Shown here in pieces: positions 1,069-38,338 of a stretch of DNA of 56,213 bases. The notes under the pieces were generated by a model that saw only the letters and a program-made list of their open reading frames with translations, made no database searches and had not been told where the DNA came from. Numbering within the stretch: position 1 is the stretch's first letter; every line of letters starts with the position of its first letter. Location of the stretch: IMG/VR virus record IMGVR_UViG_3300006108_000017, positions 1 to 56,213 of that record; one strand, written 5' to 3'. A program made the position numbers and the translations under genes. This stretch comes from a virus.

Positions 1069-2466
1069 TTACGCTGCTTGCGCGTTTGCACGAACTTGGG
1101 CGAAGGTCATGTCGCGGACGAGCTTGCCGTCACGGAACACTTCCTCCAAGGCCTGCTTAGGCCAATCTTCTACGCCACTGAAGTAATTTCCAGTGTCGTC
1201 CTTCATCAGGGTTACCCGACCCTTTTTAGAGGTCTTACCGTGGTCGGTGATCGGGTCCTTGTAGACGTCTCTCCAGAAGAGAGTCGCCTTGTCTCCCCGA
1301 ATACCGATCGAGCTGCACTTCATCGCGAACTTCATGGTGTCGCGATTGACCTGCTGCAGTAGAGCACCACCTTGACCGAAGGTGATGTTGTCGGCGCTGT
1401 AGCCGGCCATGTCGGTCACGAAGAGGATTGCACGGATCGTAGTGTGATCAATGCCGTCTCCCTGGATGACGCGAACATTGTTGAGGACCTTGTAGCCCTT
1501 GTCGTTGATGGTGTGGCCGAAATGCTCATCGAGAATGCGGAGGCAATCAAGAACCACTTCAGCAGGGTCACCGCTGTCAGGGCGAACCACCACGGTGGCG
1601 CCGCTCTTGATGACGTCTTCCTTCAGCTTGGTTCCCCAGAGGTGGCAAGCTGCGAAGATGTCGTAGCTGTCAGAGACGCAGGCAACCAAACCACCAGGCT
1701 TGGCGTTCTGCTTCAGCATGTTGCGGAAGGAAGTTTCTTCACCGTCACGGCCCCAGCTGGTTACCGTGCTGTGCTCCATCGCAGGGATGGAGAAGCCGGC
1801 CATCGGCTCATTGTAGAAGCGACGTCCAGCCAGAATAGCAGAGATCGTGTCAGTGCCCTTGAAGTTGATTAGGTGGGCGAGACCGCCGAGAGCAGCGCTT
1901 TCCTTGCTGCTAACGCCTCGGGCGCCGAAGTCCTGCAGCTTGAAGTCGATGAGCGAAGGATCACCTGTCTTCTCGAGAGCCTTGAGGATGATCTTGCGGC
2001 TTTCGTAGCTGTTAGTTGCGACCGTGGTCGGATACCAGATGGCCCGGAGGATTGCGGTCTCGAGGAAGCTGGTCAGCCAGGCGCACTTGGGATCAGTGTT
2101 CTCAATGGTTGCGAGAACGTTCTTCGTGGGGATGATGGCGCCCTCAGGAGCCGCCTTGATCACGACTGGCATGTAGCCCTTGTGCTTCTTGAGAATGTAT
2201 TCCCAGCCGGCACGGTTGAAGGGTTCGCCATGAGCGAGGATGAGTTCCTCAGCATAGTCGATGTCGGATTGGGTGATCGGCTTCATGAGGTAGCGCTTGA
2301 TGAACGCCTGCAGACCAAAGAAGACCGTCTTGTCCCAATGACCACCGCGGCTCTCAATGTACGAGTAGACGTACTCGGTCCCCGGAGGATACTGGTTGAA
2401 CTGGCTGTACTTGTAGCTGTCGCTATCAAGGATAATGCTATCCCAGTTGATTTCGTCGATATTCAT
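1069..2466 (-). CDS. nadV: Nicotinamide phosphoribosyltransferase (NAMPT)
   Basis: Makes NMN from nicotinamide and PRPP, the first step of NAD+ salvage. The 465 residues match full-length NAMPT. Visible family motifs are DFGARGVSS (about 179-187), FKGTDT (202-207, carrying the Asp that selects nicotinamide), EHSTVTSWGRDGE (231-243, with the active-site His) and VVVRPDSGDP, which binds the phosphoribosyl group. The next enzyme of the pathway is encoded immediately upstream on the same strand, separated only by a homing endonuclease gene. In phages this pair rebuilds NAD+ and can defeat NAD+-depleting defences. Family assignment is very secure. Confidence 0.96.
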   Translation of the reverse strand: MNIDEINWDSIILDSDSYKYSQFNQYPPGTEYVYSYIESRGGHWDKTVFFGLQAFIKRYLMKPITQSDIDYAEELILAHGEPFNRAGWEYILKKHKGYMPVVIKAAPEGAIIPTKNVLATIENTDPKCAWLTSFLETAILRAIWYPTTVATNSYESRKIILKALEKTGDPSLIDFKLQDFGARGVSSKESAALGGLAHLINFKGTDTISAILAGRRFYNEPMAGFSIPAMEHSTVTSWGRDGEETSFRNMLKQNAKPGGLVACVSDSYDIFAACHLWGTKLKEDVIKSGATVVVRPDSGDPAEVVLDCLRILDEHFGHTINDKGYKVLNNVRVIQGDGIDHTTIRAILFVTDMAGYSADNITFGQGGALLQQVNRDTMKFAMKCSSIGIRGDKATLFWRDVYKDPITDHGKTSKKGRVTLMKDDTGNYFSGVEDWPKQALEEVFRDGKLVRDMTFAQVRANAQAA

Positions 2467-2561: not shown

Positions 2562-3104
2562 ATGAAGCGCTACGGGTTTATCTACATTACCACAAACACT
2601 ACCAATGGCATGAAATACATTGGACAATGTTCTGGTGATCCGGAGAGCTCCATGGTTAAAAGATACTTTGGTTCTGGCAAGGCCATTCTTCGAGCAATAA
2701 GAAAGAATGGTATTGAGAACTTTACAAAAGAGATTGTAGAGTTTGCAGACAGTCGTGAAGAACTTAATGCCGCCGAACGAAGGATTATAGCAGAGCACGG
2801 CGCCGTCAGAAGCAGAAACTACTACAACATTTCTCCAGGTGGAAGAGCGTCTTTGGGATTTACAGGAAAGAAACACTCTCTTGAAAGAAATGCTAGATTG
2901 AGCGAAAAGATGAAAGGCCATAGTGTCTCTCAAAATGTTAGAAAAGCCACTGCTGAAACCGGCAAGAGATTTGCTGCCAAAAATCTCAACACGGTCAGGG
3001 TAACTTGCCCGCACTGTGGTTTTGTAGGCTACAAAGGAAACTTGCATCGTTGGCACTTTTCTAACTGTAAGCTTAAACCCGACCAACCATCGTCTGAAGA
3101 ATAG
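2562..3104 (+). CDS. GIY-YIG homing endonuclease
   Basis: 180 residues, starting at MKRYGFIY behind a strong GGAGGGG site. The N-terminus carries the GIY-YIG core (YGFIYITTN, then KYIGQ), a conserved Arg in KRYFGSGK and a Glu in the expected place. The middle has a NUMOD3-like DNA-binding stretch (GKKHSLERNARLSEKM). The C-terminus is a small zinc-ribbon-like module, CPHCGF followed by HRWHFSNC. It is transcribed against its neighbours and its last 32 bp overlap the 3' end of the NMN adenylyltransferase gene. It is a selfish element inserted between the two NAD salvage genes. The lower GC of this gene agrees with transfer. Confidence 0.9.
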   Translation: MKRYGFIYITTNTTNGMKYIGQCSGDPESSMVKRYFGSGKAILRAIRKNGIENFTKEIVEFADSREELNAAERRIIAEHGAVRSRNYYNISPGGRASLGFTGKKHSLERNARLSEKMKGHSVSQNVRKATAETGKRFAAKNLNTVRVTCPHCGFVGYKGNLHRWHFSNCKLKPDQPSSEE

Positions 3105-4140
3105 ACCAATGGTCCTCAAACCATCTATCTGTTTGTGAGAGTGCTTCGTTGATTGGGATCCACTCGCACTTCTTAACTTCTCCCTTTTGAGGACGGACTT
3201 TCGGGAGAGGCTTGCTGTCATCGAGCTTCAGAAGGTAGCACGTGGTGATCGTACGACCACGAAGGCTACGATCTGGATGATCGAAGATTTCCTTGCTGCG
3301 AACGGCGCCGTAGAGCTGAGCCTTGGAAAGCTCAATGCGGGTTTCTTCCTGCAGCTCACGAATGGCACCATCGAGAGTCTTTTCGTCTTGCTCGAGGAAC
3401 CCGCCAGGGAGAGCCCAGAGACCGACGCCAGGGAAGTTGTCGCGGACATTGACAAGGACGTGTCCAGATTGGATGACGCACGTATCAACCGTGACGAACG
3501 TGGGCGCATATGGTGCAGCTTCCCAGGCCTTCTTGTATCGCTCGATGAACTCGTACTCACGGACCAGACCTTCGTAGGCTGGGTTCTTGAGGAAGTCCTC
3601 GAGGAAGTAGTAGGTCGTTTGCGGGATGGATTTGGTTGATGCGATTTCCTTCTTGCCGAAGAGAGCATCGCGCACCTGAGTCGCGCTCAGTTCGAACCCG
3701 TAGTCGTGCTCCTTGACGAGGTCATGCTCGAACATGTCGCCGAAGGTGTGAAGGTACCACGTGGTCTTGTCACGATCGGCGCCCGTGAGGTGGACATCGG
3801 GATTAAGACCGATGACGTCCACGAGTTCATTGCACGCGCTGTCAACAGCTTCCTGAACACCGCGGATCCACGCTTGATCATTGTAAGGATGATCGTAGAT
3901 CGGCTTGATGAGGAGAGGCTTCGGGGAGGCGATCACGCGGTCAGCATAGTTGCGGACCATTTGGGCACGTTCTTCGAATGTGAAGGGGTTCTTGGTGTTG
4001 CGGGCTTGACCCGAACTGCCGACCAACACGAGGACAGCTTTGGACGTTTGAAGAGCTCGCTTGAGAACGGCGGCATGGCCGTTGTGGAATGGCGAGAATC
4101 GTCCGATGAAGACCGTTAGGCCTTTAAGTTTGTGTTCCAT
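3073..4140 (-). CDS. nadM: Bifunctional NMN adenylyltransferase / Nudix hydrolase
   Basis: 355 residues in two domains. The N-terminal nucleotidyltransferase (about 1-190) has GRFSPFHNGH (13-22, the HxGH ATP site) and LSATQVR (151-157) and makes NAD+ from NMN and ATP. The C-terminal Nudix domain (about 210-340) has a complete Nudix box, beginning GGFLEQDE and ending RELQEE (about 246-266), as in enzymes acting on ADP-ribose. The start at MEHKLKG is preferred over one 48 bp upstream because GGGAG precedes it and the late promoter at 4192-4199 would start transcription after the upstream codon. Matches NatV/NadM enzymes of large phages. Confidence 0.95.
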   Translation of the reverse strand: MEHKLKGLTVFIGRFSPFHNGHAAVLKRALQTSKAVLVLVGSSGQARNTKNPFTFEERAQMVRNYADRVIASPKPLLIKPIYDHPYNDQAWIRGVQEAVDSACNELVDVIGLNPDVHLTGADRDKTTWYLHTFGDMFEHDLVKEHDYGFELSATQVRDALFGKKEIASTKSIPQTTYYFLEDFLKNPAYEGLVREYEFIERYKKAWEAAPYAPTFVTVDTCVIQSGHVLVNVRDNFPGVGLWALPGGFLEQDEKTLDGAIRELQEETRIELSKAQLYGAVRSKEIFDHPDRSLRGRTITTCYLLKLDDSKPLPKVRPQKGEVKKCEWIPINEALSQTDRWFEDHWSILQTMVGRV

Positions 4141-4191
4141 ACTGGCTCCCAGTTGGCTGATGTCCACAAGGATCGTTTCCTTGATCAAAAT

Positions 4192-6502: not shown

Positions 6503-6751
6503 TTATTGGCTCTTCCACGGCTCAAACACTCGCTCCATCAGTTCGCGAATGTCGGGAACGCGCTTGGCGTCCATGAGAAGATCCAAGTGCTCCTGCTCCA
6601 GCTTGAATGGTTCTTCTTTGATTGACACGCCGAGCTTCTGCTTGGCCCAATGAGCTGCACGATGTGTGTCTACATTTCCGTACTGGTCACAGAAGTTGTA
6701 GAAGATCAACAGAATGTCGATCTCCAACTTGGTGACATCAGGCTCATTCAT
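6503..6751 (-). CDS. Small helical protein of unknown function
   Basis: 82 residues from MNEPDVTKLEID, behind AAGGAGACG. All-helical, with HWAKQKLGVSIKEEPF and a charged C-terminus. A longer reading would start inside the tmRNA terminator and is rejected. No family recognised. Confidence 0.65.
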   Translation of the reverse strand: MNEPDVTKLEIDILLIFYNFCDQYGNVDTHRAAHWAKQKLGVSIKEEPFKLEQEHLDLLMDAKRVPDIRELMERVFEPWKSQ

Positions 6752-6770
6752 TTGTACGCGTCTCCTTGTT

Positions 6771-6800
6771 AAAAATGGGAGACCCCCGAAGGAGCCTCCC
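6771..6800 (-). terminator. Terminator of the tmRNA
   Basis: GGGAG-CTCC / GGGG-CTCCC hairpin with a TTCG-type loop followed by ATTTTT on the minus strand, immediately after the last tmRNA pseudoknot-like stems. Confidence 0.8.
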
Positions 6801-6968
6801 ACCTAACCGTTCGGTGACAAGGTGGTCAGCCTCGTGAGGACTTAAGCCGCGAGGGCTACCTCAAATGCGTTATCGTTAGCATTTACTTTTTTCGCTTCCC
6901 TTAGGGGGAACGCCTATCCTGTCGCGCCCGTCATCTCAGCAACACTGTCGAAACTGGTCGGGCCCATG

Positions 6969-7041
6969 ATTAAGCATTTGGCATCTCAACTGATACTTTT
7001 GGACACAGGTGCCGGTTTTACGGCTGAGCCAAATGCTTAAT
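6969..7041 (-). repeat. 14-bp inverted repeat closing the tmRNA intervening loop
   Basis: Arms 6969-6982 and 7028-7041 are perfectly complementary (TTAAGCATTTGGC core). They hold the acceptor and coding ends together in the precursor, as in permuted bacterial tmRNAs where the loop is excised. Confidence 0.85.
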
Positions 7042-7133
7042 GGTGGACCCGCCGGGAATCGCACCCGGGTCCAATGTTCTTCAAGTCAAGTCGAATTACG
7101 ACAATCATCTCGGCCTTACGGCTTCGATATTCT

Positions 7134-25456: not shown

Positions 25457-26002
25457 TTAGGCCGTAACGATGGTGGCTTCAGTGCCAACCGACGGGCTGA
25501 ACGTTCCAGCGGCACGAATGGCCAGCTTGACGGTGTCGATCGCGTCGTCAAGCGACTTTGGCTCGTGGTGCTTCAGCGTCGTAAACACGCTGGCACGAGC
25601 GTACTCTTCACCAGAACCAACCGCGTTGTAGCCGAGGACGGAGCGAAGAACGCTGTAGTCCGGCTGAAGTTCCCAAAGCTGACCGCGAACACCGATAAGT
25701 GCGTTGCCGCCCTCGCTGTCCTTGCCGTAACCGCTTTCCTTCAGTGCGCTCTTGATGTCGGGGACGACGACCGTAATCAGCCAGCGATAGATGTCGTCAG
25801 TGTCCTCTGGAACAACCGGGTCAGCAAGCATGTGCTCAAGAACCTGGCCGAATCGATAGCTCGAGGTGTAGCCGAAGACCACGCCCTTCTTGTTGAACAC
25901 CTTTGGCTGAGTGTGAACGATCTTGTTGTTCCAGCCGGTGCCCTGAACATCACCACCGATGATGACCTTGTTCTTGTATTCCAATCCGACGATACACGTC
26001 AT
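25457..26002 (-). CDS. HslV/proteasome beta-like Ntn hydrolase
   Basis: 181 residues. MTCIVGLEYKNKVIIGGDVQGT places Thr2 as the potential N-terminal nucleophile after Met removal, followed by the GGD strand; later a Lys (QPKVF, comparable to Lys33) and GSGEEYARASVFTTL, the hallmark glycine turn and helix of proteasome-type subunits. This matches HslV in size. No HslU-like ATPase is encoded in the window, so it may use a host unfoldase or act differently. Confidence 0.75.
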   Translation of the reverse strand: MTCIVGLEYKNKVIIGGDVQGTGWNNKIVHTQPKVFNKKGVVFGYTSSYRFGQVLEHMLADPVVPEDTDDIYRWLITVVVPDIKSALKESGYGKDSEGGNALIGVRGQLWELQPDYSVLRSVLGYNAVGSGEEYARASVFTTLKHHEPKSLDDAIDTVKLAIRAAGTFSPSVGTEATIVTA

Positions 26003-26577
26003 ATGATCTCCGTTGCGATAAGATGAAGTTGGAGTATGATGACCATCGCGTACGCAATGGCATGGGATTTTTTGAACGAGTAGCCATTCTCGTCCTTGGC
26101 ATACAAAGCTCTGCGGGTAGCTTCCCGCTGAGAGTTGTAAAGCTTGACGAGCTGCTTCTTTCCTGGACGGATGAGGGCAAGAACGTCGGCTAGTTCCTCA
26201 ATGTTCTTCGGCTTTACCGCCGAAAGAATGTCACCGTGGTTGGAAAGCTGGAAGAGCTTCTTCTGCTCAGAAGGAATGGTGAGAAGGCCCCAATCTGGTT
26301 CGATCTCCAGAAGCTGTTCGATCTCCTCGCGCGATTTGAAATGGTCGTAGACGCTGAGGTGCAGGAAGTCGATCTTGATGTAGCCCTCTTCCTCGGCCTG
26401 CTCGTAGGGGATTGCAGAAAGACCGGTGACCGGATCAACCGGAACAGTCTGGGGATAGATGCCGCAGGGATGGGGCGCGAGGTCACCGTTCTTCACGAGT
26501 GACGCCTTGGTCCAGGGGAACAGCTTTCGTGGGTTGAAGTCAGTTCGAAGATCGATGTCTACGTCAGGTAGCTTCAC
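25999..26577 (-). CDS. DnaE-like polymerase fragment B (catalytic Asp half)
   Basis: 192 residues matching bacterial DNA polymerase III alpha in the right order but shortened: PDVDIDL at 4-10 (DnaE PDFDVDF, first two catalytic Asp), HPCGIYP at 36-42, GYIKIDFLHL at 65-74 (third catalytic Asp), KLFQLSN, KPKNIEELADVLALIRPG at 122-139 and FKKSHAIAYA at 168-177. It begins exactly where fragment A at 32933-33460 stops. The PHP, fingers and beta-binding parts are missing. ATGA overlap with the zinc-finger gene upstream. Whether it polymerises DNA is unknown. Confidence 0.8.
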   Translation of the reverse strand: MKLPDVDIDLRTDFNPRKLFPWTKASLVKNGDLAPHPCGIYPQTVPVDPVTGLSAIPYEQAEEEGYIKIDFLHLSVYDHFKSREEIEQLLEIEPDWGLLTIPSEQKKLFQLSNHGDILSAVKPKNIEELADVLALIRPGKKQLVKLYNSQREATRRALYAKDENGYSFKKSHAIAYAMVIILQLHLIATEII

Positions 26578-27275
26578 AGACCAAGTTCCTTAACCAGCGA
26601 CTTGATCTGTTCGACGGTCGCTCTCTCCTTAGAGAACTTGCCGCCCCAGTAGGATGAGTTGACCACGGCATCGAAGGACTTGAGATGCTCCTTGTCGAGC
26701 TGCTTCAGGACCTTGCCGAAGGAAGCTGAACAGAACAGGAACCAAGGAGAAAGTCGGCGCTGACGGATCAAAGAGAGGATGCGCTGGACACCGAGGTGCT
26801 CGAAGATTTTGTCAAGCGGGACTTCTTCCTTCTCACAGATATCGAGAAGGTGGTTGATGCTGTCCTGGACCTGCTCAAGCGGGTCGTGAAGGCTGTCGAA
26901 CCACTGAGTGTAGAGCGTGTAAGCTCCGGGCGAACACCAAAGAGCCGGCTGAACTTCACCCTCGGTCATCAGCTCAAGGTACTTGTCTGGTCTAGAGATG
27001 TTGGCGTCCACGATCAACTTCGCAAAGTTGATGAACGCGCGGTAGAACTTGCTCTCGAGGAATGCAGCCGAGGATGGCTGGCTGAACTTCCTCATCCGCA
27101 TCCAGTCGCGGTAGAGAGCGAACGCGCTTTGCCCGAGCGGGCTCATCAGCTCTTCAGAGCGGCGCTTTGGTTCGCAGCTGTGGCGCATGTACAGCGTTTC
27201 GTTTGTGAACCGCTTGTTGCAGTGGGCACACAGCCAATGGCCTTTCTTCGAAGCGGAAATTACCGCTTCTTCCAT
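26574..27275 (-). CDS. Zinc-finger phage protein of unknown function
   Basis: 233 residues from MEEAVISASKKGHWLC. Near the N-terminus is a C2H2-type finger (WLCAHCNKRFTNETLYMRHSC). The rest is helical with several Trp/Tyr clusters (WCSPGAYTLYTQWF, RRLSPWFLFC). It is coupled by ATGA overlap to DnaE-like fragment B and may act with it. The start is uncertain: in-frame ATGs at 27365 and 27401 would extend it into the upstream gene. Confidence 0.65.
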   Translation of the reverse strand: MEEAVISASKKGHWLCAHCNKRFTNETLYMRHSCEPKRRSEELMSPLGQSAFALYRDWMRMRKFSQPSSAAFLESKFYRAFINFAKLIVDANISRPDKYLELMTEGEVQPALWCSPGAYTLYTQWFDSLHDPLEQVQDSINHLLDICEKEEVPLDKIFEHLGVQRILSLIRQRRLSPWFLFCSASFGKVLKQLDKEHLKSFDAVVNSSYWGGKFSKERATVEQIKSLVKELGL

Positions 27276-27306
27276 AGGGATGCGTCGTGAAGCTATTTCC
27301 TCGGTG

Positions 27307-28032
27307 TTAAGAAGCTTCAGTTCGGTAGGCTCTGAGTTCTTCCGGGCCAACGACAATCTCCTCATCTTTCCAAATAAATCCGGGCTTCGTAGGTTCACCA
27401 TGCTCGCGGAACTGAGCGATGAACTCCCGGATTACGTGCTCGTCAATGTACTCTTTATTTACCGTTGCGAAGACGCCTATCGCTACAGGACCGTAATCCA
27501 CGAGCTGATAGCCTGGAGCTGTCTTCCATTCCTGAGACAGGAGTTCCTGCAAGCGGGCCTTTTCAAAGGCCCCGCGGGCTTTTTCTGTCTCGGTGCGCTC
27601 ACGGCGCAGCCACGATTCAAAGTCCTCGGGCTTGCGGTCAGGGTCGACCGGATATTCAACAAGCGCATCTTCCCAGCTCTGCTGCTCCGCAAGCCCGTAA
27701 ATCTTGTAGCGTGCCGTGGTCATGGCGACAGCGTAGTAGCGCTTCAGGCGGGTATGAAAGAAGCGGAAGTCGACCCAGTGCCAGGGGTGCTCTGGCTCGT
27801 AGAGGTGATCGCAGTAGAAGTCCCCACCGTACGCGCAGTCAGGGTACTTTCGCATGAGGTTCTTCGCCTTGATGTAGCGGAGCTTCCGCTGCTTGGCGTT
27901 CTTCTCGAAGCCCTTGTGGGCTCGCAGTCTATTCCCAGTCATCTCGAACTGTTCTCCATGATCATCCGGCCCGTTGTACGCAAGCGCCATCGCGAGCTGC
28001 TCAAAGGTCAGCGTCGCAATGAAGCCGGTCAT
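27307..28032 (-). CDS. Phage protein of unknown function
   Basis: 241 residues from MTGFIATLTF. A basic helical N-terminal half, an aromatic stretch with Cys and His (CAYGGDFYCDHLYEPEHPWHW, perhaps metal-binding) and a Glu-rich helical C-terminal half. Overlaps the stop of the gene upstream by a few bases. No family recognised. Confidence 0.65.
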   Translation of the reverse strand: MTGFIATLTFEQLAMALAYNGPDDHGEQFEMTGNRLRAHKGFEKNAKQRKLRYIKAKNLMRKYPDCAYGGDFYCDHLYEPEHPWHWVDFRFFHTRLKRYYAVAMTTARYKIYGLAEQQSWEDALVEYPVDPDRKPEDFESWLRRERTETEKARGAFEKARLQELLSQEWKTAPGYQLVDYGPVAIGVFATVNKEYIDEHVIREFIAQFREHGEPTKPGFIWKDEEIVVGPEELRAYRTEAS

Positions 28033-28037
28033 CGGCT

Positions 28038-28391
28038 TTACCACGTAACTTCGCCGAGGTCGTTGTTCTTGATGCGCTTTTCGGCTTCTTCACGCGATAG
28101 AACCCGTAGGTTTTCTTCACCCACCTGTTCTATCCAGCCTTGAAGAACGCTAGCAGTAAAGCCGGACATGCCCATCATTTCCCGATGGCAGCGATAGATG
28201 CTGCCGCTGTAGTTGGTGAAGTTAAGAAAGTCGCCGTCTTCCTCAACCTTCTCGATGCCAGAGCTCAACCGATAGCTGTCGCTACCAAGGTAGCCGCCGT
28301 ACCAACTTCCAAGAACCTTGGTCAGCGTGGTGTTTGCTTTTGGGAACCGCTGTTCGACGATGACCCACTTCTCCGGATTGTACTCGCTCAT
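28038..28391 (-). CDS. Phage protein of unknown function
   Basis: 117 residues, ATGA overlap with the gp62-like gene. KWVIVEQRFPKANTTLTKVLGSWYGGYLGSDSYRLSSGI is a beta-rich core; RSSG-type turns and YRCHRE follow. No family recognised. Confidence 0.65.
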   Translation of the reverse strand: MSEYNPEKWVIVEQRFPKANTTLTKVLGSWYGGYLGSDSYRLSSGIEKVEEDGDFLNFTNYSGSIYRCHREMMGMSGFTASVLQGWIEQVGEENLRVLSREEAEKRIKNNDLGEVTW

Positions 28392-28849
28392 GGCTTCAAC
28401 TCCTTACTCAGTTTCGTAATGTCGTCCTTTTGATACCCCAGCTCTTCAGCCATCTGAAGGATTTCATCAGCGGACGGGAATGGATTGAGGAGGCGTACCT
28501 CGCGCTGGGACATTTCGTAGAACTCACCGACGACCTTCATGGCCTCGGCATTCTTCTTAGAGCTCTTGATCCCGATCCACTGGTACCGCCGAGGCGACTT
28601 CGAGTTGGCCACCTGCAGAAGTTGCATGAGAAGATGGGGATGCTTACCTAGCGGGAAGACAACCGGATTGACAAACTCGTTGATCAACTGGATTTGCCGC
28701 TCATCACTCGTGCCAGACATCCACCGCATCACCACGAGAGGAGCGAAGCCCTTCTTTTCGTCATCGCTCAGCTTCGCATAGATGTCACCGCTCTTCGAGC
28801 TGTTCAGCTTTCCGAGGAGATCAAAAATGTCCAGCTTGTAGGTTGCCAT
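28388..28849 (-). CDS. 62: Probable clamp-loader small subunit (gp62-like)
   Basis: 153 residues. Position is the main evidence: it follows gp44 in transcription order, as 62 follows 44 in T4, with only a homing endonuclease in between. The sequence MATYKLDIFDLL, then PLVVMRWMSGTSDERQIQLINEF and HPHLLMQLLQVANSKSPRRYQWI fits the gp62 pattern of a short helical protein with a conserved basic RRYxW motif. T4 gp62 is somewhat longer (187). Homology not testable here. Confidence 0.6.
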   Translation of the reverse strand: MATYKLDIFDLLGKLNSSKSGDIYAKLSDDEKKGFAPLVVMRWMSGTSDERQIQLINEFVNPVVFPLGKHPHLLMQLLQVANSKSPRRYQWIGIKSSKKNAEAMKVVGEFYEMSQREVRLLNPFPSADEILQMAEELGYQKDDITKLSKELKP

Positions 28850-28860
28850 TAGAGCTTGCC

Positions 28861-28868
28861 TATAAATA
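28861..28868 (+). promoter_or_regulatory. Late-type promoter of HNH gene
   Basis: TATAAATA, exact T4 late consensus, 29 bp before the HNH gene start. Confidence 0.65.
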
Positions 28869-28889
28869 TTGCTGCTAAATTAGATGAGG

Positions 28890-28897
28890 TATTTATA
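28890..28897 (-). promoter_or_regulatory. Late-type promoter facing the HNH promoter
   Basis: TATAAATA on the minus strand in front of the gp62-like gene; it overlaps the HNH start codon and faces the plus-strand promoter at 28861. Confidence 0.5.
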
Positions 28898-29523
28898 TGG
28901 ACTATCGTAGGGTGTATTTCAGCATAATTGACAATGCGCGGTCTAGAGGGGATGTTAGAGCTTCTAAAAGATCCAAACTTGAAGGATATGAAAAACACCA
29001 CATTCTTCCAAGATGTGCAGGAGGAACCAATGATCCTAGCAATCTTGTTTTCCTGACTACGCGGGAGCATTTTATCTGTCATGCCCTTCTTGTAAAGTTC
29101 TGCGAACCTCAACATCTCAAGTCACTCCAATACGCGTTAGGGATGATGCGCTCGCGAGGGAAAGTAGTTTCTTCAAGGCTTTATGAATTTGCTTGCAATC
29201 AACATAGACAGGCAATAACAAGTGCAAGAATTGGATCGAGACATTCAGAAGAAACAAAGCTAAAGATTTCTCTTGCGCACAGGGGAAGGAAGCGAAGCAA
29301 AGAGCACTGTGAAAATACTCGCCTTTCGCAGCTAGGAAAAACCCTTTCACCTGATCATAGAAAAAAACTCGGCGATGCCACTCGCGGACGCTCAATTTCC
29401 TACACCCTTACAGAAAAGCAGTTGGCACCAAAGCCCTCTATTACATGTCCGCACTGTGGAAAAATAGGTGGGAAAGGCGCCATGAACAGATGGCACTTTA
29501 ACAATTGTCCTTCTAGAGCTTAG
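28897..29523 (+). CDS. HNH homing endonuclease with NUMOD3 repeats
   Basis: 208 residues behind GAGG. HNH core YEKHHILPRCAGGTNDPSNL (about 32-51) and then REHFICHALL. Two NUMOD3-like DNA-binding repeats follow (RHSEETKLKISLAHRGRKRS and LSPDHRKKLGDATRG). The C-terminus (CPHCGKIGGKG, RWHFNNC) is nearly the same zinc module as in the GIY-YIG enzyme at 2562-3104. Its last 11 bp overlap the 3' end of gp44. It separates genes 44 and 62. Confidence 0.9.
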   Translation: MDYRRVYFSIIDNARSRGDVRASKRSKLEGYEKHHILPRCAGGTNDPSNLVFLTTREHFICHALLVKFCEPQHLKSLQYALGMMRSRGKVVSSRLYEFACNQHRQAITSARIGSRHSEETKLKISLAHRGRKRSKEHCENTRLSQLGKTLSPDHRKKLGDATRGRSISYTLTEKQLAPKPSITCPHCGKIGGKGAMNRWHFNNCPSRA

Positions 29524-30424
29524 AAAGCGAAATCATTAGGGCCGCCAAATTTATCTCAGTGTCAGCCACGATCGTGTGCTTGTAGAGAAAGTCAGCGATC
29601 GTAAGGATTGCGGACTCCTTGTCACTGATCTTCATCTTGTCAATGTTCTCATAGAGGAAGCGGAAGACGTCTTCGTGCTCCTCGCGAGTTGCAGTTTCGC
29701 AGACGAGCTTGCGCGCGGTCTTAAAGTCACCCGTGGAGATGGCATCCAGAAGACCAAACTTCCAGTCAGATGCGTCGCTCGACGCTTCCTTTGGACTCAG
29801 CAGCTTTCCACCGGAAACGTTCTGCTGTAGAAGCTGGATGGTCTTGCGGATATCAGGATATCCAACATCGATGTAGGTGAGGAGGTCCATCGCATCGTAC
29901 TCGACCTTTTCGGTCTCGAGGATGTCGACCATGCGAAGGGCGATCTTCTCCTTGTCGGGAGAGCGGAAGTAGAACTCTTGGAAGCGCGACTTCAGCGGAG
30001 GAATGATCTTGTTGACGTAGTTGCACGTCGCGATGAAGCGGCAGTTGGAGGAACTTTCCTCGATCAAGCTGCGAAGAAGGGCCTGGCCATCGAGCGAAAG
30101 ATAGTCGAACTCCTCGAGCTGGACGACCTTGAACTTGCCCATCGGCATGGTCATCGCAAAGGCGGACACCTTGTTTCGAAGTGCTTCGATCTTCTCATCT
30201 GAGCAGTTCACTCGAAGACGATCGGATCGGTCGATGCCAAGATCGCTGATGAGAGCCTTCGAGATGGTGGTCTTGCCAGTACCTTGAATGCCCGACAGAA
30301 GCAGATGCGGGATGTTGCCTTCTTCAACGAAGGACTCAAATGTCTTCTGCTGTCGCGCGTCTTGGAAGATGACGTCCTTGATGGTCTTCGGACGATAGCG
30401 CTCAACCCAAATAGATGACTTCAT
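29513..30424 (-). CDS. 44: Sliding-clamp loader large subunit (gp44)
   Basis: 303 residues, AAA+ ATPase. WVERYRPKTIKDVI at the N-terminus, Walker A SGIQGTGKTT (about 44-53), Walker B VVQLEEFDYL (about 99-108, with Glu in place of the usual Asp), sensor 1 FIATCNY and the arginine-finger loop KSRFQEF. Loads the ring clamp onto primer ends. The C-terminal collar domain is complete. Own early-type promoter. Confidence 0.95.
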   Translation of the reverse strand: MKSSIWVERYRPKTIKDVIFQDARQQKTFESFVEEGNIPHLLLSGIQGTGKTTISKALISDLGIDRSDRLRVNCSDEKIEALRNKVSAFAMTMPMGKFKVVQLEEFDYLSLDGQALLRSLIEESSSNCRFIATCNYVNKIIPPLKSRFQEFYFRSPDKEKIALRMVDILETEKVEYDAMDLLTYIDVGYPDIRKTIQLLQQNVSGGKLLSPKEASSDASDWKFGLLDAISTGDFKTARKLVCETATREEHEDVFRFLYENIDKMKISDKESAILTIADFLYKHTIVADTEINLAALMISLSKL

Positions 30425-30462
30425 TATGTACCCTTAAAATGGACATCCCTCGTACGTGACTT

Positions 30463-30493
30463 ATTTTAACACGCTTTCAAGGGGAAGTAAACT
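30463..30493 (-). promoter_or_regulatory. Early-type promoter of gene 44
   Basis: TTTACT, 17 bp, TAAAAT. Confidence 0.65.
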
Positions 30494-30497
30494 GTCT

Positions 30498-31835
30498 TTA
30501 ACGACGTTGGATAGGAGGAGCCGTCTCGTCGTCGATGCCGTTGTAGACATCTCTCAGAGAGGAAAGGCTGGCTCTGCGCTCCTCATCCGTCTCTACGTCC
30601 GCGTTACCGCGAATGTCTTCTAGCTGAGAGCGGACCTTAGGAAGAAGCTGGTCCTTGGTGATGACCTCACGCTCCTCGAACTCATTTGGAAGAGCTGGAC
30701 GAACGGCGTTGATAACCGTTGGTGCAGGGTCTTCTACGCGTTCACGACCGAGATGCGCATGGAGCTGGTCCTCGGTGAGATGATCGAGCGCTTCAGAAGG
30801 ATGATCATGTGCTGTGGCGTTTGCAACAGTCCCGCGAGCAACCAGATCATCGTCAGTAAGGTGATCGACTTGGTCTACAAGACCCTCTGGCGCCTTCTGC
30901 CGACCAAGAACCACATGAAGGCTGTCATCATCAACATCCTGCATGACATCTGGTTCAGCCGGAGCAACTTCTACTGGCTGCTCCCATACGTCAGGGTAGT
31001 GCTGGTCGGGATCAACACCCTCTAGAAGTTCAGCCAGCGTTGGCTTTACCGAGACATTCGATACATCAACTCGGACCTCGTCGGCAGGTGCGGGAGCTGC
31101 CAACTCTGACGTGGGCTCGCTGGGAAACGTGGCGCCTCCCTGCTTGGCGAGCTTCTCGTCTTCGATCTGCTTTAGCAAGAAGTTCCCCGCGAGAAGCAGC
31201 GCGATTGCCAGCGGGTCAAACACGAAGATGATGGTGAAGATGACCCACTTTACCGCGTGTTCTGGATCGGTGTTGAAGGCCTGTGCGACGTAGATGATAG
31301 GACCAACGTCGGTGTTCTTCTGGATGCTGGCGACCTTCAGCTTTGGCAGCTGCTGATCAATCTCAGCGAGTCGAGCGTTGATGCGACCAACTTCAGGCGC
31401 GTAGGAGTTCATCAGCTTCGTGCGCCCACGGACAGAGTTGGTCGGCAGCTTTGCAATCTGGCTGTCGATTTCCTGCTTACGCGCTTGAAGGCGGGTTTGT
31501 TCCTGCGTCATGGACGTTAGAACGACGTTGTCAGAGTTTGTTCCAGCGATGGCGTGTTGGAACTGTCCAGAGAGATAGCCAAAACACCCAGCAGACGTGA
31601 TGATCATCAGCACAACCGCGGCGATCGTCATGTAGACGCGCATTGCCAGATTGATTTTCTGCCAGTACTTGTAGAGGAAGGAAACTGTAACGACCTTTCC
31701 GAGGTCGAGAGCCATTGCAAGAATGATGATCACCGGGTTCGCAGCGAACAGCGCGGACAGACCAACTACCGAAACAAACGTGCCAATGCCCTCAATAAGG
31801 AAGGCCGACAGTAGGACGAGAAGTGCAAAAGGCAT
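30498..31835 (-). CDS. Large membrane protein with acidic C-terminal repeats
   Basis: 445 residues. Three N-terminal transmembrane helices (about 2-24, 32-54, 66-92), a coiled-coil stalk (about 105-165, EQTRLQARKQEIDSQIAKL), a fourth helix (about 200-222), then a long acidic, Pro-rich tail with three degenerate repeats of the form DHLTxDxLxAxLG (DDSLHVVLG, DHLTDDDLVARG, DHLTEDQLHAHLG). The plan suggests a membrane scaffold with a tail acting in the cytoplasm. No family recognised. Confidence 0.7.
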   Translation of the reverse strand: MPFALLVLLSAFLIEGIGTFVSVVGLSALFAANPVIIILAMALDLGKVVTVSFLYKYWQKINLAMRVYMTIAAVVLMIITSAGCFGYLSGQFQHAIAGTNSDNVVLTSMTQEQTRLQARKQEIDSQIAKLPTNSVRGRTKLMNSYAPEVGRINARLAEIDQQLPKLKVASIQKNTDVGPIIYVAQAFNTDPEHAVKWVIFTIIFVFDPLAIALLLAGNFLLKQIEDEKLAKQGGATFPSEPTSELAAPAPADEVRVDVSNVSVKPTLAELLEGVDPDQHYPDVWEQPVEVAPAEPDVMQDVDDDSLHVVLGRQKAPEGLVDQVDHLTDDDLVARGTVANATAHDHPSEALDHLTEDQLHAHLGRERVEDPAPTVINAVRPALPNEFEEREVITKDQLLPKVRSQLEDIRGNADVETDEERRASLSSLRDVYNGIDDETAPPIQRR

Positions 31836-31848
31836 CAATAGTTCCTGT

Positions 31849-32181
31849 TTAGAATGCTGGTTTTACGGCGTAGTCGTAAGCCATGCTCTCGTCACCAATG
31901 CCGAGAACCCACTGGTCATCTGATTTCCAGATGACAACTTCGTCGTGTTTGAAACCGGTGGTCCACTTGCCTGGGGCAATGAGGACGACGTCACCTGGAC
32001 CGAAGTCTTTCACTTCGTTTCCGACCGCTAGGACCTTTGCCCATCGGCCCAGATCACCCTGTCTGCCGAGCTCTGGGGTGACAATGATGATGTTTCCCTT
32101 GTTCTTACTGACGAAAGCTCCATCGCGGGTTTCGTTCAGGAAAGTGAACAAGAAGGTGTTGCGCAGCGGTCTTAGCGCCAT
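31849..32181 (-). CDS. GroES-like co-chaperonin (gp31-like)
   Basis: 110 residues, all-beta. RPLRNTFLFTFLNET, then KGNIIIVTPELGRQGDLGRWAKVLAVG and VKDFGPGDVVLIAPGKWTTGF follow the GroES order: RPL...D.V at the N-terminus, strand, a mobile-loop-like region, a V.AVG turn and the GD.VL. strand. T4 gp31 (111 residues) replaces GroES for capsid folding. Assigned from pattern and size. Confidence 0.55.
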   Translation of the reverse strand: MALRPLRNTFLFTFLNETRDGAFVSKNKGNIIIVTPELGRQGDLGRWAKVLAVGNEVKDFGPGDVVLIAPGKWTTGFKHDEVVIWKSDDQWVLGIGDESMAYDYAVKPAF

Positions 32182-32205
32182 TAGATTTCTCCTGAAAGGT
32201 AGGAC

Positions 32206-32487
32206 TTATTCAGCGTTCTTGATGAGGGCTTCTGCAGATTCCTGCAGCGCGGCCTTCGCGATATCAAGTGGGGAAGAAGTGTCGGCAGGAGCGGCCGGTG
32301 CTGCTTGCACGGGTGCCGCTGGAGAGACGATGAAGTTCTCTCTCGTCTTGATGCCGTCCTTCTCGTCGATGAACTTACGGCGTGCATTGACGCCAACTGG
32401 AACTGGAGTAGTTGCGAGCTGCTGCTTGATGGCCAGCAGATCAAAATCTACGATTTCGCCACGTGCTGAACGTGCTTTCTTCGCCAT
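32206..32487 (-). CDS. Conserved T4-type phage protein of unknown function
   Basis: 93 residues behind GGAGAG. Basic head MAKKARSARGEIVDFDLLAIKQQL followed by an Ala/Pro linker and a helical tail. The head has the look of a conserved protein of marine T4-type phages; function unknown. Confidence 0.65.
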   Translation of the reverse strand: MAKKARSARGEIVDFDLLAIKQQLATTPVPVGVNARRKFIDEKDGIKTRENFIVSPAAPVQAAPAAPADTSSPLDIAKAALQESAEALIKNAE

Positions 32488-32515
32488 TAGGAGTCTCTCC
32501 GGAAAAGGTCTGTAC

Positions 32516-32523
32516 GATAAATA
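32516..32523 (+). promoter_or_regulatory. Late-type promoter of HNH gene (GATAAATA)
   Basis: About 45 bp before the HNH start at 32562. Confidence 0.6.
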
Positions 32524-32541
32524 TATGAATCGTTCTGCATA

Positions 32542-32549
32542 TATTTATA
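32542..32549 (-). promoter_or_regulatory. Late-type promoter facing the HNH promoter
   Basis: TATAAATA on the minus strand, 55 bp before the gene at 32206-32487; faces the plus-strand promoter at 32516. Confidence 0.5.
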
Positions 32550-32561
32550 TTGGGTCCGGCC

Positions 32562-32936
32562 ATGATAGACATCCCATATTATCCTGGGTACAAACTAACA
32601 GAAGATTTTCAGGTTATCGGAAAGAAAGGATTTCCTCTGTCTTTTTCGGGTAGTCCTTATCAGCTCTGCAACGTTTTCGTAAATGGCAAATCATCTATCC
32701 TGTACAAACACCGGGCCATCGCTCTTGTGCATGTTCCTGGATATTTTGAAGGCGCAGAGGTTGATCACAAAGATCGTGATCCTACTAACAACCATCCGTC
32801 AAATCTCAGGTGGGTTACTCCAGCTGAAAATGCGCAGAACATCAGCCTCGAGCACGTTGAAGAACAGATACGCCTAACTAAAATGCGTCTAGCTAAACTA
32901 GAACGTCAGCGAAAGATGATATTGACTCTGCGTTAA
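32562..32936 (+). CDS. Short HNH homing endonuclease (NUMOD4-like head)
   Basis: 124 residues. An N-terminal NUMOD4-like strand region (YYPGYKLTEDFQVIGKKG), then HRAIALVHVPGYF and the HNH core VDHKDRDPTNNHPSNLRWVT (about 69-88). It ends with a Lys/Arg-rich helix. It is antisense to its neighbours, and its 3' end overlaps the stop of DnaE-like fragment A by four bases. Lower GC than its surroundings. Good candidate for the element that split or abuts the DnaE-like gene. Confidence 0.88.
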   Translation: MIDIPYYPGYKLTEDFQVIGKKGFPLSFSGSPYQLCNVFVNGKSSILYKHRAIALVHVPGYFEGAEVDHKDRDPTNNHPSNLRWVTPAENAQNISLEHVEEQIRLTKMRLAKLERQRKMILTLR

Positions 32937-33460
32937 TCGTGGAAGAACTCTGTCATATCGATGTTGAATTTCACTGGATCGACCTTGTGAAGCCCGATAA
33001 GATAGAGAACCAGTGAGGCGCATGACGATCCTCTTCCAACTCCCCAAACCGTTTTCGTGCTCTTCAGGGTTTCTACCACGTAGATCAGCGTCCTGAAGAA
33101 CTTGTCCATGTTCATCTTCTTGATCATGGCAAGCTCATTGTCGGTTCGGCGCGCGTAGATTTCCAACTTGTCTTCTGGAAGGTTGAGAGCCAGAAGTTTC
33201 TCACCGACATATTCTGCCAGATCGATCTTCAGGTATTTCTCAGGCACCTGCCAATCCTTCAGGAAGGGATCATTGCCGGTTTTCGTGTTGGCGATGGGCT
33301 CTTCTGAAAGGGCGTTGAACTGCAGAATGTCGTCATTATTGTCAGTAACGACGATCTTCTCGATCGGAACTTCCATGAGCAGCAGGTCTGGGACCAGCTC
33401 GGGGGATACCTGACTGGTCCCATCGAACCAAAGCGTTCTGTTTTTCAGTTCGGTTTTCAT
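32933..33460 (-). CDS. DnaE-like polymerase fragment A (GRGS half)
   Basis: 175 residues. The C-terminal 70 residues match the palm start of bacterial DNA polymerase III alpha: a DNELAMIKKMNMDKFF helix (DnaE RLxxELxVIxxMGFxxYF), then VWGVGRGSSCASLVLYLIG at 138-156 (DnaE VGPGRGSxAGSLVAY), then KVDPVKFNIDMTEFF at 159-173 (DnaE DPLxxxLLFERF). It stops exactly where the DxD strand should follow; that strand begins fragment B at 25999-26577. The first 100 residues replace the PHP domain and show none of its metal-binding His/Asp motifs. Confidence 0.8.
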   Translation of the reverse strand: MKTELKNRTLWFDGTSQVSPELVPDLLLMEVPIEKIVVTDNNDDILQFNALSEEPIANTKTGNDPFLKDWQVPEKYLKIDLAEYVGEKLLALNLPEDKLEIYARRTDNELAMIKKMNMDKFFRTLIYVVETLKSTKTVWGVGRGSSCASLVLYLIGLHKVDPVKFNIDMTEFFHD

Positions 33461-37537: not shown

Positions 37538-38338
37538 CTATTTATCGAACAGAATCGCTTGGACGTTTTCTACCTTAGGCAGATGGTCGTAGCACTCGAG
37601 ATTGACGGTCGATCGCAGAACCTTGCCATGGGGGCGATGATGGGCTGGGATGTTGGCGAGCTGCTCAGGGCTCAGTTCCGTCTCAGCGGTCCGACGCTTT
37701 GCGAAGGTGCCGAAGCGGAACGACATGGGCTCGTCTTCCCAGGGATGTTCGATTTCCACAAGCATCTTTTTCTTCTGCTCGCTTCCAACACCCTGCAGCT
37801 GCTTGTGGGAGAAGTGGGCCTGGGCGGCCATCGAGATGGAGTTCTTGATGCAGTCCTCTTGGCGCCACAGATAGTTCAGATAGACGTGGTGCATGTCGGG
37901 AACGTTCCACACGCGACAGTCGAAGTGCGGGTAGAAGTTTTCCTTTTCGCGGAGAATCGAAGGAATGCGCCGTGAGAAGTATGAGGAGGCCATGCCGGCC
38001 AGCACTGAGGTCAGCTTTTGGAACTTCCCGCCGAAGGGATATTCGGAGCCGGTCAGAGCGTACTGCTCCGGGGTTCCGTTGTACCAGCACAGGGTGATCT
38101 CATCGGACTGACAGTAGCCGACGATCGCGTGGGTTTCCTCGACGAGGAACTTCATCGTGTCCTGCATCAGCATCGTGAGACGCATGTCGTACGGACGCTG
38201 AAGACCCTTCGTGAAGGTGTGGAACGCGCGGCCATCGAGGCGAGCCATCAGAGGCAGCCCGCGGTCTGCGGCCCGACCGGCTTCGGCCTGCTCTTGCGCC
38301 TTGAGCTTGTCGCCCAGAGAGTCCTTAGATTCAACCAT
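37538..38338 (-). CDS. Thg1-like 3'-5' polymerase (tRNA-His guanylyltransferase family)
   Basis: 266 residues. ARLDGRAFHTFTKGLQRPYD (about 32-51) carries the first catalytic Asp, GYCQSDEITLCW (about 74-85) the second Asp plus Glu, matching the Thg1 metal site; SSYFSRR and FDCRVWNVPD are also family motifs. Thg1-like proteins add nucleotides in the reverse 3'-5' direction to repair tRNA 5' ends. Its start overlaps the DUF3307 gene by 8 bp. Confidence 0.88.
   Translation of the reverse strand: MVESKDSLGDKLKAQEQAEAGRAADRGLPLMARLDGRAFHTFTKGLQRPYDMRLTMLMQDTMKFLVEETHAIVGYCQSDEITLCWYNGTPEQYALTGSEYPFGGKFQKLTSVLAGMASSYFSRRIPSILREKENFYPHFDCRVWNVPDMHHVYLNYLWRQEDCIKNSISMAAQAHFSHKQLQGVGSEQKKKMLVEIEHPWEDEPMSFRFGTFAKRRTAETELSPEQLANIPAHHRPHGKVLRSTVNLECYDHLPKVENVQAILFDK

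What the first reader, a model, noticed from the sequence alone, without database searches (positions are those of the whole stretch)
25999..33460. A bacterial-type DnaE polymerase core split across two distant genes
Fragment A (32933-33460) ends with the DnaE palm start (GVGRGSSCASL, then DPVKFN...EFF) and fragment B (25999-26577) begins with the next DnaE element (PDVDIDL) and continues in order with HPCGIYP, KIDFL, KP.NIEELADVLALIRPG and FKKSHAIAYA. All three catalytic Asp positions appear kept. The cut falls exactly between two consecutive strands. The halves lie 6.4 kb apart on one strand and are much shorter than DnaE, with no PHP, full fingers or clamp-binding part. An HNH homing endonuclease overlaps the end of fragment A. 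A two-piece minimal C-family palm in a T4-type phage could be a working split enzyme, a regulator that mimics the host polymerase, or a relic.
Basis: partly seen in the sequence, partly recalled or inferred. Interest (0 to 1): 0.92.

Follow-up and report, generated by a model that had tools for sequence, protein, structure and literature searches.

The report
Two-gene minimal phage DNA polymerase III
A virus of bacteria carries a stripped-down copy of the bacterial replication enzyme cut into two separate genes; this two-gene enzyme was described in 2021 from other giant phages and has apparently never been tested, and its conserved active site and fixed gene partners now make it an easy target for experiments.

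Summary
Fragment A (32933-33460, -) equals E. coli DnaE residues about 275-392 (triphosphate-binding GRGSS loop). Fragment B (25999-26577, -) starts at the D401/D403 strand and carries all three catalytic Asp plus a reduced fingers base; PHP, thumb and clamp-binding parts are absent. The kind is already published: Iyer et al. 2021 (PMC7824862) described this split minimal Pol III alpha in "group 2.2" jumbo phages, and PHROGs holds both halves as separate families (11127, 11778). The window is a new, uncultured member.

What I add. Catalytic residues are invariant in 97 B and 86 A sequences, with dN/dS about 0.1-0.2 in close pairs. Nine of nine cultured phages carry one A, one B and a family-B polymerase, including a 141-kb non-jumbo phage. 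A third, unannotated C2HC zinc-finger protein (phrog_11058; window 26574-27401) precedes B in 94 of 96 loci, and B follows it in 60 of 61 loci found the other way round. In contig L016, clamp loader, this protein, A and B form one operon.

Best reading: A and B reassemble one working accessory polymerase active site in a T4-type replisome. A relic is rejected. A regulator or host mimic is unlikely. Activity is untested.

The parts
32933..33460 (-). Gene A (175 aa): N-terminal half of the minimal Pol III alpha palm, with the GRGSS triphosphate loop; phrog_11127
   Evidence: Pfam DNA_pol3_alpha 8e-15; phrog_11127 2.9e-35; profile = E. coli DnaE 275-392; AF2 pLDDT 93.0, leading PDB matches DNA polymerase III alpha
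25999..26577 (-). Gene B (192 aa, GTG start): catalytic strand DVDID (D5, D7 = D401, D403), K68/D70 (= D555), reduced fingers base with the FKKSHA helix; phrog_11778
   Evidence: phrog_11778 1.9e-59; profile colinear with Taq DnaE; AF2 pLDDT 94.5, top 15 PDB matches all C-family polymerases
26574..27401 (-). Gene U (275 aa): C2HC zinc-finger protein of unknown function (phrog_11058), overlaps the start of B by 4 nt (GTGA)
   Evidence: phrog_11058 9.5e-46; upstream of B in 94/96 loci, B downstream of U in 60/61 loci; invariant Cys/Cys/His/Cys
29513..30424 (-). gp44-like clamp loader large subunit, downstream of A in relatives
   Evidence: phrog_168 7e-82; same-strand downstream of A, 65 matches at 67 loci
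28388..28849 (-). gp62-like clamp loader small subunit (weak match)
   Evidence: phrog_225 E = 0.0008 and phrog_11758 9e-21; upstream of B, 78 matches at 96 loci
32550..32936 (+). HNH endonuclease gene, convergent with A, overlaps it by 4 bp; local insertion, not part of the system
   Evidence: Pfam HNH_3 2e-12; no relative near A in 67 loci

Best explanation
A and B are the two subunits of a minimal, thumb-less C-family (DnaE-type) DNA polymerase. A supplies the start of the pol-beta-fold palm with the GRGSS loop that grips the incoming triphosphate. B supplies the adjacent strands with the three metal-binding Asp, the Lys before the third Asp, and a short fingers base. Together they rebuild one active site. 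The pair works beside the phage's own family-B replicase and T4-type clamp loader, primase and helicase, most likely in short or distributive synthesis (gap filling, repair, primer extension or hand-off) rather than as the main replicase. Shown by computation: homology, residue conservation, co-occurrence, operon linkage, purifying selection and the fold of each half. Inferred: physical association of A and B, polymerase activity, and the role in replication.
For: Colinear, non-overlapping match of the halves to DnaE. Confident AF2 folds whose leading PDB matches are C-family polymerases. D5, D7, D9, K68 and D70 invariant in every B row that covers them (97), and GRGS in all 86 A sequences. 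One A, one B and a family-B polymerase in 9/9 cultured genomes, and both halves in 4 of 5 large uncultured contigs. dN/dS about 0.1-0.2 for close pairs of both halves. A is linked to the clamp loader, B to gp62, primase and helicase. In L016 gp44-gp62-U-A-x-x-B is one operon. The same inference was made independently by Iyer et al..
Against: No co-fold of A with B could be run and no biochemistry was found. B lacks the thumb and the fingers stretch that holds template and nucleotide in DnaE, including the conserved RR motif, so it may not polymerise unaided. The genes are usually far apart and lie in different gene orders. The window contains no family-B polymerase, but it is only a 56-kb fragment.
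Confidence: 0.75

Rival explanations
1. Non-polymerising regulator or host mimic: A and B copy the host DnaE palm to bind and block or redirect the host replisome.
For: Small size; loss of thumb and most of the fingers; the phages have another replicase.
Against: All metal-binding Asp, the Lys and the GRGS loop are invariant, which mimicry would not require. The parts that contact host clamp, tau and epsilon are absent. Linkage is to phage replication genes.
Confidence: 0.1
2. A nucleotidyltransferase with another product (for example terminal addition or RNA/primer modification) built on the same split active site.
For: Catalytic core kept, but template-holding thumb and fingers parts lost; the pol-beta fold is used by many nucleotidyltransferases (general knowledge).
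Against: Consistent placement with clamp loader, primase and helicase, and a retained DnaE-type fingers helix (FKKSHA).
Confidence: 0.13
3. Decaying relic of a full DnaE gene cut by homing endonucleases.
For: HNH gene next to A and a second homing endonuclease nearby.
Against: Same split in hundreds of contigs; intact frames; invariant catalytic residues; strong purifying selection; no HNH relative near A elsewhere.
Confidence: 0.02

Closest known systems
Split minimal DNA polymerase III alpha of group 2.2 jumbo phages (Iyer et al. 2021, Viruses 13:63, PMC7824862)
   Same: Two separate small proteins; [quoted passage not shown] no other Pol III domains; T4-type phages with a family-B polymerase.
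   Different: Here the genes are 6.4 kb apart and linked through the clamp loader and U genes rather than 'distantly located'; the phage is uncultured, with no DNA-level match among 50,697 phage records for the 12 kb around the genes.
Bacterial DnaE (C-family Pol III alpha; E. coli 2HNH, T. aquaticus 2HPI)
   Same: Palm topology, GRGS loop, D401/D403/D405/D555 and the preceding Lys, RP motif, K-S-H fingers helix.
   Different: No PHP, thumb, most of fingers, HhH, clamp motif or OB; two chains.
Single-chain compact phage DnaE (about 570 aa, e.g. L086:15121-16821)
   Same: C-family core without PHP, next to B in some IMG/VR contigs.
   Different: One chain, has the region between the D401/D403 strand and the third Asp and a fuller fingers domain; much more similar to DnaE.
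Cyanobacterial split-intein DnaE
   Same: DnaE from two genes.
   Different: Joined by inteins (PMC3919608); no intein sequence here.

Membership tests
Split minimal Pol III alpha of group 2.2 jumbo phages | Two separate ORFs for the N- and C-terminal palm halves | tested here: met
Split minimal Pol III alpha of group 2.2 jumbo phages | No other Pol III alpha domains in either protein | tested here: met
   Whole-protein Pfam scan finds only the NTPase or finger segment; lengths 175 and 192 aa
Split minimal Pol III alpha of group 2.2 jumbo phages | Phage also has a family-B DNA polymerase | tested here: inconclusive
   None in the 56-kb fragment; present in 9/9 complete relatives
Split minimal Pol III alpha of group 2.2 jumbo phages | Encoded by distantly located genes | tested here: inconclusive
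   6.4 kb apart here; 14-44 kb or more in several cultured phages; 0.76 kb in L016. Distance varies, so it does not define the family
C-family DNA polymerase (DnaE) | Three catalytic Asp (E. coli D401, D403, D555) | tested here: met
   B D5, D7, D70; invariant in 97 sequences
C-family DNA polymerase (DnaE) | PHP domain, thumb, clamp-binding motif | tested here: not met
   Outside the matched DnaE segments; thumb = E. coli 433-509
C-family DNA polymerase (DnaE) | Template-directed DNA synthesis | not testable with these tools
   Needs purified A plus B
Split-intein DnaE | Intein halves at the cut | tested here: not met
   A ends EFFHD-stop and B starts VKLPDVDID, with no extra sequence; no group I or II intron RNA in the window

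The most novel reading that the evidence does not exclude
A, B and the zinc-finger protein U form a three-subunit minimal polymerase belonging to the clamp-loader operon. U provides the DNA grip that the missing thumb would give, making this the smallest C-family polymerase and a second, bacterial-type polymerase inside a T4-type replisome.
Probability: 0.25. Interest if true: 0.75.

Novelty: new member of a known kind. Interest (0 to 1): 0.5.

Why it matters
Replicative polymerases of bacteria (C-family) and of archaea, eukaryotes and T4 (B-family) are unrelated, yet these phages keep one of each, with the C-family one cut to its bare active site in two chains. If it works, it would show the minimum needed for C-family catalysis. 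It would also test the published idea that such forms resemble the ancestor of bacterial Pol III, and reveal a mixed replisome. The residue map, the U partner and the contiguous operon in L016 give a short list of proteins to co-express.

Tried and rejected
Relic of homing-endonuclease damage: rejected by conservation and by the absence of an HNH relative near A elsewhere.
Trans-splicing by intein or split intron: no sequence or Rfam support.
Natural A-B fusion as a template for a joint fold: none in 174 loci. The only single-chain candidates were compact DnaE proteins of another type.
Identity of U from profile searches: only generic C2H2 zinc fingers and weak 'acetone carboxylase gamma' hits, which I regard as zinc-motif similarity.
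A profile of all U sequences was too diverse to scan with; a closer subset worked.
A co-evolution test between A and B was not run: too few paired, non-redundant genomes.

Full report
OBSERVATION. Both ORFs exist as described: A at 32933-33460 (-, 175 aa) and B at 25999-26577 (-, 192 aa). The window is a whole IMG/VR record of 56,213 bp, a linear fragment, so nothing more of this genome can be searched. Pfam assigns A to DNA_pol3_alpha (8e-15) and B to the DNA_pol3_finger domain (1.7e-5). PHROGs assigns each to its own stand-alone family: A to phrog_11127 (171 positions, 3e-35) and B to phrog_11778 (197 positions, 2e-59), both named DNA polymerase. This is far beyond chance.

ANATOMY. A profile of 77 A sequences matches E. 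coli DnaE 275-392 (E = 3e-7). A profile of 64 B sequences matches Taq DnaE in three colinear stretches, 461-522, 608-714 and 809-823 (whole-sequence E = 2e-5). A therefore ends about eight residues before D401, and B begins at the strand carrying D401 and D403. In B the stretch between that strand and the third Asp is shortened by about 85 residues, which removes the thumb (E. coli 433-509; PMC4703070), and a further stretch of about 95 residues of the fingers is missing. By this alignment B D5, D7 and D70 correspond to E. coli D401, D403 and D555. D9 corresponds to D405, which is present in all DnaE groups but Asn in PolC (PMC3919608), so the pair is of DnaE type.

FOLD. AlphaFold2 with family alignments gives confident models: B mean pLDDT 94.5, A 93.0. 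Foldseek against the PDB gives DNA polymerase III alpha or PolC as the top 15 matches for B (best E 2e-4, probability 1.00) and as the leading matches for A (E 1e-3, probability 1.00). TM-scores are modest (about 0.4-0.55), as expected for partial, reduced chains.

CONSERVATION AND SELECTION. In 97 B sequences D5, D7, D9, H36, G39, K68, D70, R137, P138 and H172 are invariant. The only gaps come from one gene (L068) broken into two pieces in its contig. In 86 A sequences E109 and GRGS are invariant and S146 fails once. Overall identity to the window proteins runs as low as 30% (A) and 38% (B). Close pairs give dN about 0.03-0.16 against dS about 0.2-2.7 for both halves. A relic would not look like this.

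DISTRIBUTION. tblastn finds B in 90 phage records and A-like matches in 111; the A count probably includes full-length DnaE of other phages. Profile searches of nine cultured phages (XacN1, RAS14, GAP32, PA5oct, Vibrio 2.275.O, Phosso, Atu_ph07, Slicko01, SCTP-2) find exactly one A, one B and a family-B polymerase in every one. Slicko01 is only 141 kb, so the system is not confined to jumbo phages. Of five large uncultured contigs, four have both halves. No A-B fusion was seen in 174 loci.

GENE CONTEXT. A lies upstream of the gp44-like clamp loader (65 same-strand matches at 67 loci). B lies downstream of a gp62-like gene (78 matches at 96 loci) and upstream of primase (57) and helicase (49) genes, where reach allows. 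A third gene, U (window 26574-27401, phrog_11058, function unknown), is upstream of B on the same strand at 94 of 96 loci, median gap 205 bp. Starting instead from U, 60 of 61 loci with enough flank have B downstream. U has an invariant C-x2-C, H-x-C zinc motif and a helical-looking C-terminal part with an SPW motif. Database profiles give only generic zinc fingers. U was found in 8 of 9 cultured genomes by profile; the ninth, Slicko01, has a divergent candidate at the right place. In the window U and B overlap by 4 nt (GTGA). In contig L016 the order is gp44, gp62, U, A, two small genes, B, all on one strand, with 4-nt overlaps of U with A and of the gene before B with B. Elsewhere A and B are 14-44 kb or more apart, sometimes in reversed order. 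From my own knowledge, T4 places regA and the polymerase gene 43 just after 44-62; U and B occupy the corresponding place here, which is suggestive only.

COMPARISON WITH THE LITERATURE. Iyer et al. [quoted passage not shown] They consider it likely to reconstitute a complete enzyme, possibly cooperating with the family-B enzyme in synthesis of one strand or in repair, and propose it as a model of the ancestral Pol III. The finding is therefore a new member of that kind. My searches of the open paper library found no later work and no experiment. The U association is not mentioned in the replication section of that paper, and 'zinc finger' or 'C2H2' does not occur in it. I regard the U association and the L016 operon as new within what I could search.

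HOW IT MOST LIKELY WORKS. A and B assemble into one pol-beta-type active site. A holds the triphosphate; B holds the metals and part of the nascent pair. Without thumb or clamp motif it should be distributive and need partners; U, a zinc-finger protein of the same operon, is the natural candidate. The most likely job is short synthesis beside the family-B replicase. Homology, conservation, co-occurrence and linkage are shown; association, activity and role are inferred.

LIMITS. No joint fold of A and B could be run and no biochemistry is available. Linkage of U with B may only reflect a shared replication operon. No family-B polymerase lies within this fragment, so its presence in this particular phage is inferred from relatives.

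Noticed in passing
L042:8872-10572, L063:16085-17812, L064:15652-17379, L066:16004-17707, L070:8745-10442, L086:15121-16821: A compact single-chain DnaE of about 570 aa without PHP lies about 5 kb downstream of B in some IMG/VR contigs; not found in the nine cultured relatives tested. These phages may carry two C-family polymerases.
   Followed up: partly
window 6751-7133 (-): Phage-encoded tmRNA (tag ANDNAFEVALAA), matching Rfam permuted tmRNA and betaproteobacterial tmRNA.
   Followed up: partly
records of L010 (3529-5033), L009 (212336-213688), L005 (217618-221395): Slicko01, Atu_ph07, PA5oct: The family-B polymerase of three relatives appears to lie in two open frames, so it may also be split.
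   Followed up: no
window 25457-26002 (-): HslV/proteasome-like peptidase gene overlapping the end of B.
   Followed up: no
window 28897-29523 (+): Second homing endonuclease (NUMOD3/HNH) inserted between the two clamp loader subunit genes, on the opposite strand.
   Followed up: no
window 1069-2466 and 3073-4188 (-): NAD salvage pair: nicotinamide phosphoribosyltransferase and a nucleotidyltransferase-NUDIX protein.
   Followed up: no
window 37538-38338 (-): tRNA-His guanylyltransferase (Thg1-like) in a phage.
   Followed up: no
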